This document shows, one piece after another, positions 1-2,202 of a stretch of DNA of 6,812 bases (position 1 is its first letter; every line of letters begins with the position of its first letter). The translations under genes were made by a program, and so were the position numbers. Origin of the DNA: Candidatus Tectimicrobiota bacterium (GTDB taxonomy: Bacteria; JACPSX01). The notes beneath the pieces were generated by a model. That model was not told where the DNA came from. It made no database searches and saw only the letters and a program-made list of their open reading frames with translations. Location of the stretch: assembly GCA_016193065.1 (NCBI GenBank), contig JACPSX010000148.1, forward strand, positions 1-6,812, in the 5' to 3' direction.

Positions 1-1
1 G

Positions 2-43
2 ACGGCAGTTCATCAATTCCTCTCGGAGAGGGGTCTATCGTGA
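2..43 (+). CDS. C-terminal end of upstream gene, probably MntA-like antitoxin nucleotidyltransferase (partial)
   Basis: An open frame enters the window from the left and ends TAVHQFLSERGLS at a TGA (41-43). That TGA overlaps the GTG start of the HepT-like gene by two bases (GTGA). Thirteen residues are too few to identify a family. The assignment rests on context: HepT toxins are normally encoded directly after, and often overlapping, the MntA minimal nucleotidyltransferase antitoxin that AMPylates them. The ribosome-binding site of hepT (GGAGAGG) lies inside this frame, which fits translational coupling. If the 5' flank showed no GSxARG nucleotidyltransferase motif, this call would be wrong. 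Confidence 0.45.
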   Translation, partial: TAVHQFLSERGLS

Positions 44-471
44 GTCCCATTGAGGCGGAGGTGATCCGCCGCAAGTTGGGAATCATTACGGAGAATCTGC
101 GCGCACTGAAGCCAATCGGGACTCTCAGCTCTAAGGAATACCGCCGGGATCTATTCCGCAGGAAAGGGACGGAGAGACTCCTCCAGGAGCTGATTGAAGC
201 TGCTATTGACATCAACACCCATCTGGCTACGGCCCAGGGGCAGAGTCCCCCGGATGACTATTACGAAAGCTTCCTCAAGATGGGTGATCTCGGTGTTCTC
301 TCTTCAGAACTTGCCAACGGGCTTGCCCCCTCGGCCGGTCTCAGAAACCGCCTGGTCCACGAATACGACGTGCTGGACGACAAGCTGATCCTGGCTGCCG
401 TCAAGACCGCCCAGGATCTTTATGCCCGCTACGTGAAGGCCGTTGAGGATTTCCTGAAAACCAATCCCTAG
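40..471 (+). CDS. hepT: HepT-like ribonuclease toxin (DUF86 family)
   Basis: A 143-residue, largely helical protein of the DUF86/HepT (HEPN superfamily) type, the RNase toxin of MntA-HepT systems. The diagnostic RX4HXY motif is visible as Arg102-NRLV-His107-Glu-Tyr109. Arg and His form the HEPN RNase active site, and in studied systems the Tyr is the residue that MntA AMPylates to neutralise the toxin. The stretch around residues 45-66 (ERLLQELIEAAIDINTHLA) and the GVLSSELANGL segment (85-95) are also typical of DUF86. The start is GTG with GGAGAGG about 8 bases upstream, overlapping the stop of the preceding frame. The length matches the family (about 130-150 aa) and the motif is intact, so the toxin looks functional. 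The gene ends tail-to-tail with the selenoprotein gene, sharing CTAG as overlapping stops. The family call is firm; activity is inferred. Confidence 0.88.
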   Translation: MSPIEAEVIRRKLGIITENLRALKPIGTLSSKEYRRDLFRRKGTERLLQELIEAAIDINTHLATAQGQSPPDDYYESFLKMGDLGVLSSELANGLAPSAGLRNRLVHEYDVLDDKLILAAVKTAQDLYARYVKAVEDFLKTNP

Positions 472-1349
472 CAGTTGCAGCGGATCGCGAATTCTTTTTC
501 CCGTCCCACCAGGGACTCCCCCCTTGCCTTGTGGTCCGCCGTGTGAGCGGCGACTGTCTCCACGCCCTTCCGGTAGATATTCTTGATCGTCTCCTCCCAG
601 TCCCGGTTGTCGTCGGCGGACCACGGGAAGGGGAGTTCCAGGATCTTCCAGGGCTCGCGGAATTCCGAGGCCAGCCGCAGGGCCGCCCTCAGAATCTCGC
701 GCTGCAGCTCCGGCTCGTTGGGCTTTCCCGCGGGGCAGCCGGGGGGAAAATCGAGAAAGACGGTGCGGGGAGGCTTGAAAGCGCTGCTCACATCCCAGAG
801 GCAACTCATGCTGAGAGTGGGGAGTCCCCGGGCTTCCAATCCTCGTGCAATCAGTCCCACGGACCGATGGCAGGCGGGTCAGAGAGGGAAGAGAAAAACA
901 AGATCCACTCCCTGAGAACTAAATTCCTCCTTGATGGCGGGGACGGTCTTCTCGATCAGTTCCGTGTATCGCGTGATCGAGCCGACCATGGACACCGCTC
1001 TGGGGGCAAGACGGCCTATCGTCCCCTGGGACTCCAGTTCCGCGAGCCTGTCCCGGGGGAAAGCGACGTTCAGGTCCTCTTCGGCCCAGATCCGCACCGG
1101 TGTCTTGTGGGAAAGGATCAAATCCGAAAGAGGCGTCTTGCGATCGATCAGGCGGTAGGAGAGATCGTTCGTTTCGGCGAGAAGCGGCTCCGTGGGGAGC
1201 TGCACACCCGCGCTGCTGAAGAGGCCGATGGTGGCCTCCGCGATCGGACGGCGCAGCGGTGTGAGTTGCGGCGGATCGAAGTTCGGCAGGGGAGGGTAGG
1301 GCCTGGGGGCCATGAGCTTGGTCATGAACTCCACGTACTGAAACGGCAT
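468..1349 (-). CDS. GrdB/PrdB-like reductase family selenoprotein with in-frame UGA (Sec157)
   Basis: This reads as one 293-residue protein if the TGA at 881-879 is translated as selenocysteine (residue 157). Both halves are in the same frame and fit the glycine/sarcosine/betaine/D-proline reductase selenoprotein B family. Before the TGA are an IGLFSSAGVQL segment, the DLNVAFPRDRLAELESQGTIG block and VDLVFLFPL. After it come PACHRSVGLIARGLEARGLPTL and TVFLDFPPGCPAGKPNEPE. The TGA falls at the redox position, giving U-P-A-C (Sec157, Cys160), the UxxC arrangement of this family. A hairpin of SECIS type follows. The start at 1349 is chosen because AAGGAGGG (1364-1357) sits 7 bases upstream and the added N-terminus of the longer frame is repeat-derived. 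The protein is shorter than true GrdB (about 430 aa) and longer than PrdB (about 240 aa), so the substrate is unknown. No pyruvoyl subunit (GrdE/PrdA) is present. A nonsense-mutated pseudogene is the alternative, made less likely by conservation on both sides. Confidence 0.85.
846..872 (-). promoter_or_regulatory. Candidate bacterial SECIS element
   Basis: On the mRNA, beginning 7 nt after the UGA, TGC pairs with GCA, then there is a C/T mismatch. ATCGGTCC then pairs with GGACTGAT (8 bp, one G-U wobble) around a GTG loop. The apical loop starts 18 nt after the UGA and its first base is G, matching the described bacterial SECIS rules (loop about 16-37 nt from UGA, G in the first two loop bases). 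It would recruit SelB with Sec-tRNA. The element lies within the coding sequence, as is usual in bacteria. Confidence 0.7.
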
Positions 1350-1446: not shown

Positions 1447-2202
1447 TCAGGCAAGTCTCATCAGTGGATTCAACTGTTCAAAGAACTCCCCGATCTCTCT
1501 ATCCCACCGGTAGTCCGCCAGTGAATCCAGCGGCGTGTCGTCCCTATTAATGATGGCAAGCAGGGCGCCGCTTTGTTTCGCAATCACCGGGAAAGAGGCA
1601 GCCGGCTGAACAACAAGGGAAGAGCCCACGACGATGAAGACCTTTGCCGCCTCGCTCCACTCCTGGGCGCGCTGCATGGCCCGCAGGGGCATCTGCTGGC
1701 CGAAGGAAATGGTGGCGGGCTTTAGATAGCCGCCGCACGCATCGCAGATCGGAGGACGAAAATCGCCGACGATTCTCTCATAGATTGCGTTCGGTTCAAA
1801 TTCTTTCCCGCACTGCAGACAGGTGACTTTTCTGTCCGTGCCGTGCAACTCCACGATTTTTTCCTCGGAAACTCCGGCCATCTGGTGGAGCCCGTCCACA
1901 TTCTGCGTGATAAGACCCAGCAATTGGCCCCTCTTCTCAAACTCGGCAATCGAGTAGTGCCCGATATTCGGCTTCACGTTCTTGTAAAGTTCGTTAGTTT
2001 CCTTCTTCATCTTCCAATATTGGATGCGCGCAGCCTCGCTGTCCAGAAAGTCCGAGTAATAGACCGGCGTGTATCTTGTCCAGATCCCCCCCGGACTGCG
2101 GAAGTCGGGTACGCCGGATTCCGTGCTGATTCCCGCCCCGGTGAAGAAGACAACGTCACGGCAGGCTTTCAGTCCGCTGGCAAAGTCCTGCAGTGTCATC
2201 AT
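1447..2202 (-). CDS. sir2: NAD-dependent protein deacylase, Sir2 family
   Basis: A 251-residue cytoplasmic sirtuin that removes acyl groups from lysines using NAD+, releasing nicotinamide and O-acyl-ADP-ribose. Visible motifs are the NAD-binding TGAGISTESGVPDFRS (21-36), TQNVDGLHQMAG (99-110), catalytic His120 in ELHGT, zinc ligands Cys128, Cys131, Cys153 and Cys156 (CLQC and CDAC), VGSSLVVQPAA (192-202) and the ribose-binding IINRD (218-222). Spacing and length match compact bacterial sirtuins such as that of Thermotoga maritima. No clear Tyr-x-x-Arg pair of CobB/SIRT5-type desuccinylases is seen, so deacetylation is the more likely activity. The ATG at 2202 is chosen for AGGGA at 2214-2210 (7-base spacer). 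ATG 2199 and ATG 2217 are alternatives, and the frame stays open to 2400 without domain content. The selenoprotein gene lies 97 bases downstream on the same strand and may share the transcript. Confidence 0.93.
   Translation of the reverse strand: MMTLQDFASGLKACRDVVFFTGAGISTESGVPDFRSPGGIWTRYTPVYYSDFLDSEAARIQYWKMKKETNELYKNVKPNIGHYSIAEFEKRGQLLGLITQNVDGLHQMAGVSEEKIVELHGTDRKVTCLQCGKEFEPNAIYERIVGDFRPPICDACGGYLKPATISFGQQMPLRAMQRAQEWSEAAKVFIVVGSSLVVQPAASFPVIAKQSGALLAIINRDDTPLDSLADYRWDREIGEFFEQLNPLMRLA

What the first reader, a model, noticed from the sequence alone, without database searches (positions are those of the whole stretch)
468..1349. Unrecognised selenoprotein: GrdB/PrdB-like reductase split in two by an in-frame UGA
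Two same-frame minus-strand segments are separated by a single TGA (881-879). The TGA sits exactly where the family carries its redox-active selenocysteine (U-P-A-C). Conserved-looking family blocks continue on both sides: DLNVAFPRDRLAELESQGTIG before and TVFLDFPPGCPAGKPNEPE after. Automated annotation would report two truncated hypothetical proteins. The full protein (293 aa) is intermediate in size between PrdB and GrdB. No reductase partner subunits lie nearby, so it may be a stand-alone member with an undescribed substrate.
Basis: partly seen in the sequence, partly recalled or inferred. Interest (0 to 1): 0.85.

Follow-up and report, generated by a model that had tools for sequence, protein, structure and literature searches.

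The report
Stand-alone PrdB-like selenoprotein gene
The gene that looks cut in two by a stop codon is one intact gene for a selenium-containing enzyme, a lone relative of proline reductase whose selenoprotein family has been known since 2005 but whose job without its usual partner protein is still unknown.

Summary
Window 468-1349 (minus strand) is one 293-codon frame with a single in-frame TGA at 881-879. It is a real selenocysteine (Sec) codon. 28 further homologous genes, in 27 other genomes of the 386 searched, carry TGA in the same U-x-x-C column. The hairpin right after it fits the published bacterial SECIS model. Its stem covaries at a codon third position that the protein does not constrain, and Cys homologues lack it. 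All 27 other genomes have SelA. The host MAG has SelB and two SelD genes that themselves carry in-frame TGA; selA and tRNA-Sec were not found in this 86%-complete, 294-contig bin.

The protein belongs to the PrdB/GrdB superfamily (PF07355 just over its cut-off; TIGR04483 129.5 bits against a 300-bit cut-off). It is not PrdB proper: it sits outside the canonical PrdB clade, and 24 of 28 Sec-bearing genomes, including its own, lack any PrdA/GrdE-type (PF09338) pyruvoyl partner. It has no conserved neighbour.

Sec 'PrdB' (pfam07355, UxxC) has been reported as an abundant selenoprotein family since 2005-2008. So this is a new member of a known kind. What stays open is what a PrdB-like selenol reductase does without PrdA.

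The parts
468..1349 (-). Complete selenoprotein gene, 293 aa plus stop, PrdB/GrdB superfamily, ATG at 1349-1347, TAG stop at 470-468
879..881 (-). In-frame TGA read as selenocysteine, residue 157, motif U-P-A-C-H
   Evidence: TGA in the same column in 28 other loci; Cys in homologues from Roseomonas, Haematobacter, Bradyrhizobium and an Acidimicrobiaceae MAG
850..868 (-). Bacterial SECIS hairpin core: 8-bp stem AUCGGUCC/GGACUGAU, apical loop GUG, 18 nt after the UGA
   Evidence: fits the model quoted from PMC13188914
1357..1364 (-). Shine-Dalgarno-like AAGGAGGG, 7 nt before the ATG
   Evidence: sequence
1447..2181 (-). Upstream same-strand neighbour: Sir2-family deacylase; not a conserved neighbour of this family
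   Evidence: Pfam SIR2 7.6e-45; neighbour clustering
1..471 (+). Convergent downstream neighbour: HepT-type RNase toxin (frame runs to the contig's left end)
   Evidence: NF047751 95.4 bits, cut-off 60

Best explanation
A functional selenoprotein gene. The ribosome reads UGA 881-879 as selenocysteine, directed by SelB bound to the SECIS hairpin just downstream. The product is a stand-alone, PrdB-like selenol reductase. By inference, Sec157 sits at the N-terminus of a helix in a Rossmann-like alpha/beta fold as the nucleophile, and Cys160 of U-x-x-C resolves the selenenylsulfide, so that the enzyme reduces a small substrate (or a protein disulfide) with thiol electrons, without the pyruvoyl (PrdA/GrdE) subunit that D-proline and glycine reductases use to hold their amine substrate. 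Shown by comparison: Sec codon, SECIS, family, absence of a partner gene. Inferred: chemistry, electron donor, substrate.
For: In-frame TGA in the same column in 29 loci of 28 genomes. SECIS: 91.7% of cells paired, 0 of 500 shuffles reach it, slid controls 12-52%, 14 cells with both sides changed against 4.1 expected. The Ser/Thr/Ala codon first base pairs with the Gly codon third base in 28 of 29 Sec loci (T-A 20, A-T 5, G-C 2, T-G 1), against 1 of 9 Cys loci. The hairpin meets the published bSECIS limits (loop 3 nt beginning G-U, stem 8 bp, spacing 18 nt, MFE -17.5 kcal/mol for 52 nt). SelB 370.6 bits over the whole model; two SelD each with a TGA at the SelD Sec site. SelA in 27 of 27 other Sec-bearing genomes against 12 of 29 genomes without a homologue. 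PF09338 absent in 24 of 28 Sec-bearing genomes, own genome included, while canonical PrdA does match it. Where PF09338 occurs in G047 it lies beside the long GrdB-type genes, not beside the two PrdB-like genes. No recurrent neighbour in 25 loci. AlphaFold model pLDDT 81, pTM 0.82, strand 150-154, then Sec157, then helix 158-173.
Against: selA and tRNA-Sec were not found in the host bin, although 86% completeness and 294 contigs make a gap likely and selB begins about 260 bases from a contig end. The shuffle z-score of the single window hairpin is only -1.1; the case rests on comparison. Substrate and electron donor are untested, and no solved structure with a clear match was found.
Confidence: 0.9

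Rival explanations
1. It is a D-proline reductase PrdB subunit whose PrdA, PrdC and other partners lie in the missing 14% of the genome.
For: TIGR04483 (PrdB) is the best family hit, 1.3e-37, over nearly its whole length; the bin is 86% complete.
Against: Score 129.5 against a cut-off of 300, while a real PrdB scores 399.7. Canonical PrdB genes sit beside prdA and form one 100/100 clade that excludes the window. 24 of 28 genomes with the Sec gene lack PF09338, most of them over 90% complete.
Confidence: 0.06
2. A pseudogene: an ordinary protein truncated by a nonsense mutation.
For: A TGA interrupts the frame, and selA and tRNA-Sec are not in the bin.
Against: The same TGA in 28 other loci across many families, a covarying SECIS, and third-position substitutions in the 3' part.
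Confidence: 0.01
3. Two separate proteins, or a genetic code in which TGA is read as Trp or Gly.
For: Standard gene calling gives two frames, 191 and 130 aa.
Against: The other genes of the window read through without internal TGA; the usual alternative residue in aligned homologues is Cys, not Trp or Gly; a changed code would need no SECIS.
Confidence: 0.01

Closest known systems
Sec-containing 'proline reductase PrdB' family of marine metagenomes (pfam07355, UxxC; PMC1088965, PMC2398784)
   Same: Same Pfam family, same UxxC Sec motif, same UGA-SECIS logic
   Different: Those sequences were not at hand to align; this one comes from an unnamed lineage with no relative nearer than domain in the held set
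PrdB of D-proline reductase (TIGR04483)
   Same: About 35% identity to Peptoclostridium PrdB, Sec and Cys in the same columns, similar core
   Different: Motif UPACHRSVG instead of UGTCHR[ST]; about 50 extra C-terminal residues, mostly one helix; no prdA cluster; below the equivalog cut-off; outside the PrdB clade
GrdB/GrdF/GrdH of glycine, sarcosine and betaine reductases (TIGR01917, TIGR01918, NF040794, NF040795)
   Same: Homologous C-terminal half with the Sec motif
   Different: Those models are about 430 positions, with an N-terminal half missing here; in G047 the GrdB-type genes sit beside PF09338 genes
Cys-type 'glycine/sarcosine/betaine reductase selenoprotein B family protein' of Alphaproteobacteria (WP_207415257, WP_035710215; Bradyrhizobium)
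   Same: Stand-alone genes of about 300 aa, C-P-x-C-H-Q motif in the same columns, no reductase partner among the listed neighbours
   Different: Cys instead of Sec, and weak SECIS-position pairing

Membership tests
Bacterial selenoproteins | In-frame UGA at a column where homologues have Cys or Sec | tested here: met
Bacterial selenoproteins | bSECIS hairpin: loop of 3-9 nt with G in its first two positions, stem 4-16 bp, 16-37 nt after the UGA | tested here: met
   Loop GUG, 8 bp, 18 nt; covariation
Bacterial selenoproteins | SelB and SelD in the host | tested here: met
Bacterial selenoproteins | SelA and tRNA-Sec in the host | tested here: inconclusive
   Not found in an 86%-complete bin; SelA present in all 27 other Sec-bearing genomes
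GRDB Pfam family PF07355 | Score over the gathering cut-off | tested here: met
   23.9 bits, cut-off 22, E 3e-5; marginal
PrdB, D-proline reductase (TIGR04483 equivalog) | Score over the curated cut-off of 300 bits | tested here: not met
   129.5 bits; Enterococcus PrdB gives 399.7
PrdB, D-proline reductase (TIGR04483 equivalog) | PrdA pyruvoyl proprotein in the same genome | tested here: not met
   No PF09338 in G000 (the bin is 86% complete); canonical PrdA does match PF09338
PrdB, D-proline reductase (TIGR04483 equivalog) | Reduces D-proline to 5-aminovalerate | not testable with these tools
   needs an assay
GrdB, glycine reductase selenoprotein B | Full-length match of about 430 positions and a GrdE partner | tested here: not met
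   27.5 bits over profile positions 268-418 of 431, cut-off 602; no PF09338

The most novel reading that the evidence does not exclude
The PrdA-less PrdB-like Sec proteins are a distinct, widespread class of selenol reductase that works without a pyruvoyl partner on an undescribed substrate, so that the 'proline reductase' label given to the abundant marine selenoproteins is wrong for most of them.
Probability: 0.55. Interest if true: 0.65.

Novelty: new member of a known kind. Interest (0 to 1): 0.42.

Why it matters
It adds a well-supported selenoprotein gene that plain gene calling splits in two, with a clean example of codon-level covariation in a SECIS. More usefully, it makes an old gap testable: Sec 'PrdB' is among the most abundant marine selenoproteins, yet in the genomes checked here most bearers have no PrdA-type partner, so they are unlikely to be making D-proline reductase as it is known.

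Tried and rejected
Gene-neighbour clustering of 25 loci found no recurrent partner. A scan of genome contigs with the single protein found nothing, and with the alignment only six homologues, all with Cys in the motif column, because back-translation turns the Sec column into TGY; one of them (L106) has an internal stop in the frame read. Viral contigs: none. Phage records: one weak, unannotated hit, not followed. Foldseek against the PDB: no match at E 0.001 or better; VIA-align Z up to 8.4 to LacI-type and generic Rossmann-like folds, not taken as kinship. The second selB hit, on C112, is EF-Tu. The L021 row in the 'none' group was wrongly anchored and is disregarded; the strand of several loci was wrong and was redone. 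Paper searches for the stand-alone form found nothing.

Full report
1. The observation. Minus-strand frame 1349-468 is open from ATG to TAG with one TGA at 881-879, giving 293 residues with U157. Standard calling gives two ORFs, 191 aa and 130 aa. A Shine-Dalgarno AAGGAGGG precedes the ATG.

2. Family. Pfam: GRDB, 23.9 bits (cut-off 22). NCBIfam: PrdB TIGR04483, 129.5 bits over profile positions 16-235 of 238, below the 300-bit cut-off; weaker partial matches to GrdB, GrdF and GrdH. Positive control: Enterococcus PrdB 399.7 bits. An alignment with ten relatives, Sec and Cys, puts U157 on the catalytic Sec/Cys column and C160 on its partner.

3. Recoding. Searching 386 genomes from across the domain with a five-member profile found 43 with homologues. 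In 28 loci besides the window, in 27 other genomes, a TGA falls on this column, in contexts such as PLUPACHQSVGL, PVUPLCNQSVGL and PAUGICNQSVGL. The hairpin after the UGA has the same place and shape in nearly all. Counted on 27 distinct sequences: 91.7% of cells paired, 0 of 500 shuffles as high, slid controls 12-52%, 14 double-change cells against 4.1 in shuffles. The most telling pair joins the first base of the Ser/Thr/Ala codon to the third, silent base of the Gly codon: T-A 20, A-T 5, G-C 2, T-G 1, one mismatch. Of nine Cys homologues only one keeps this pair, and their stem pairing is lower, 3-6 of 8 against mostly 7-8. The window hairpin satisfies the bSECIS limits printed in PMC13188914.

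4. Machinery. Host bin: 2.9 Mb, 294 contigs, 86% complete. SelB is full length (370.6 bits), and two SelD genes each have a TGA at the SelD Sec site. SelA was not found, nor a tRNA-Sec by Rfam, by ARAGORN on selected contigs or by two patterns. The Rfam first look scored 150 of 508 candidates, so this absence is not proof, and the contig with selB starts about 260 bases before it. SelA is present in 27 of 27 other Sec-bearing genomes against 12 of 29 genomes without a homologue, Fisher p 6e-7; genomes are related to varying degrees, so the p-value is a guide.

5. Selection on the 3' part. Contig C106 of the same bin ends with the last 48 codons of a near copy: 11 of 144 bases differ, 9 at third positions, 46 of 48 residues identical. 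Together with the HepT gene the overlap is 85% identical in DNA over 611 bases, so it is a second locus or a related strain, not the same sequence.

6. Stand-alone. PF09338, the pyruvoyl-forming partner family, is absent in 24 of the 28 Sec-bearing genomes, own genome included; canonical PrdA matches it. In G047, which has three, each lies beside a long GrdB-type gene (C5, C30 at 92-95 kb, C31), while the two PrdB-like genes are on C25 and on C30 at 50 kb. No other gene recurs beside the family in 25 loci beyond closely related genome pairs. In the tree canonical PrdB is one clade (100/100), and the window groups with L018, L025 and an Acidimicrobiaceae Cys form (100/97), inside a set of eight Sec and one Cys (95/90). 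Cys appears in several separate places, so Sec/Cys exchange seems to have happened more than once.

7. Structure and mechanism. The model (pLDDT 81, pTM 0.82) is an alpha/beta fold with Sec157 between strand 150-154 and helix 158-173, the usual place for a nucleophilic selenol with a resolving Cys three residues on (general knowledge of thiol oxidoreductases). No solved relative was found by sequence or fold. That the enzyme reduces a small substrate or disulfide through a selenenylsulfide is inference from the U-x-x-C motif and from PrdB/GrdB chemistry.

8. What is known. Sec 'PrdB' was the third most abundant known family in the Sargasso Sea set (42 genes, UXXC; PMC1088965) and had 235 Sec sequences in GOS (PMC2398784); 'proline reductase' selenoproteins were also listed for Anaeromyxobacter and Geobacter (PMC1794560). 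So the selenoprotein family is known. I found no paper on the PrdA-less form in the held library, but that library is partial.

Verdict: a genuine selenoprotein gene, a new member of a known kind, with an unassigned substrate.

Noticed in passing
L033 (G000:C175) 260-9476: selB and a Sec-containing selD lie on one contig with a phosphonate-type ABC transporter (substrate-binding protein, ATPase, two permease-like ORFs) directly before selD; a possible selenium-oxyanion uptake system.
   Followed up: partly
L029 (G000:C120) and L030 (G000:C175): Two different SelD genes in one bin, both with TGA at the Sec site.
   Followed up: partly
window 9-614 and L035 7603-8208: Two contigs of the bin share HepT and the end of the selenoprotein gene at 85% DNA identity; either a duplicated locus or a strain mixture.
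   Followed up: partly
L103 642-1511: An Acidimicrobiaceae MAG holds a Cys homologue grouped within the window's own small clade (99/90), a sign of Sec/Cys exchange there.
   Followed up: no
L071 (G263:C188): The one Sec locus with a different hairpin register (GCAC-GGUC-GUGC); it is nearest to canonical PrdB in the tree.
   Followed up: no
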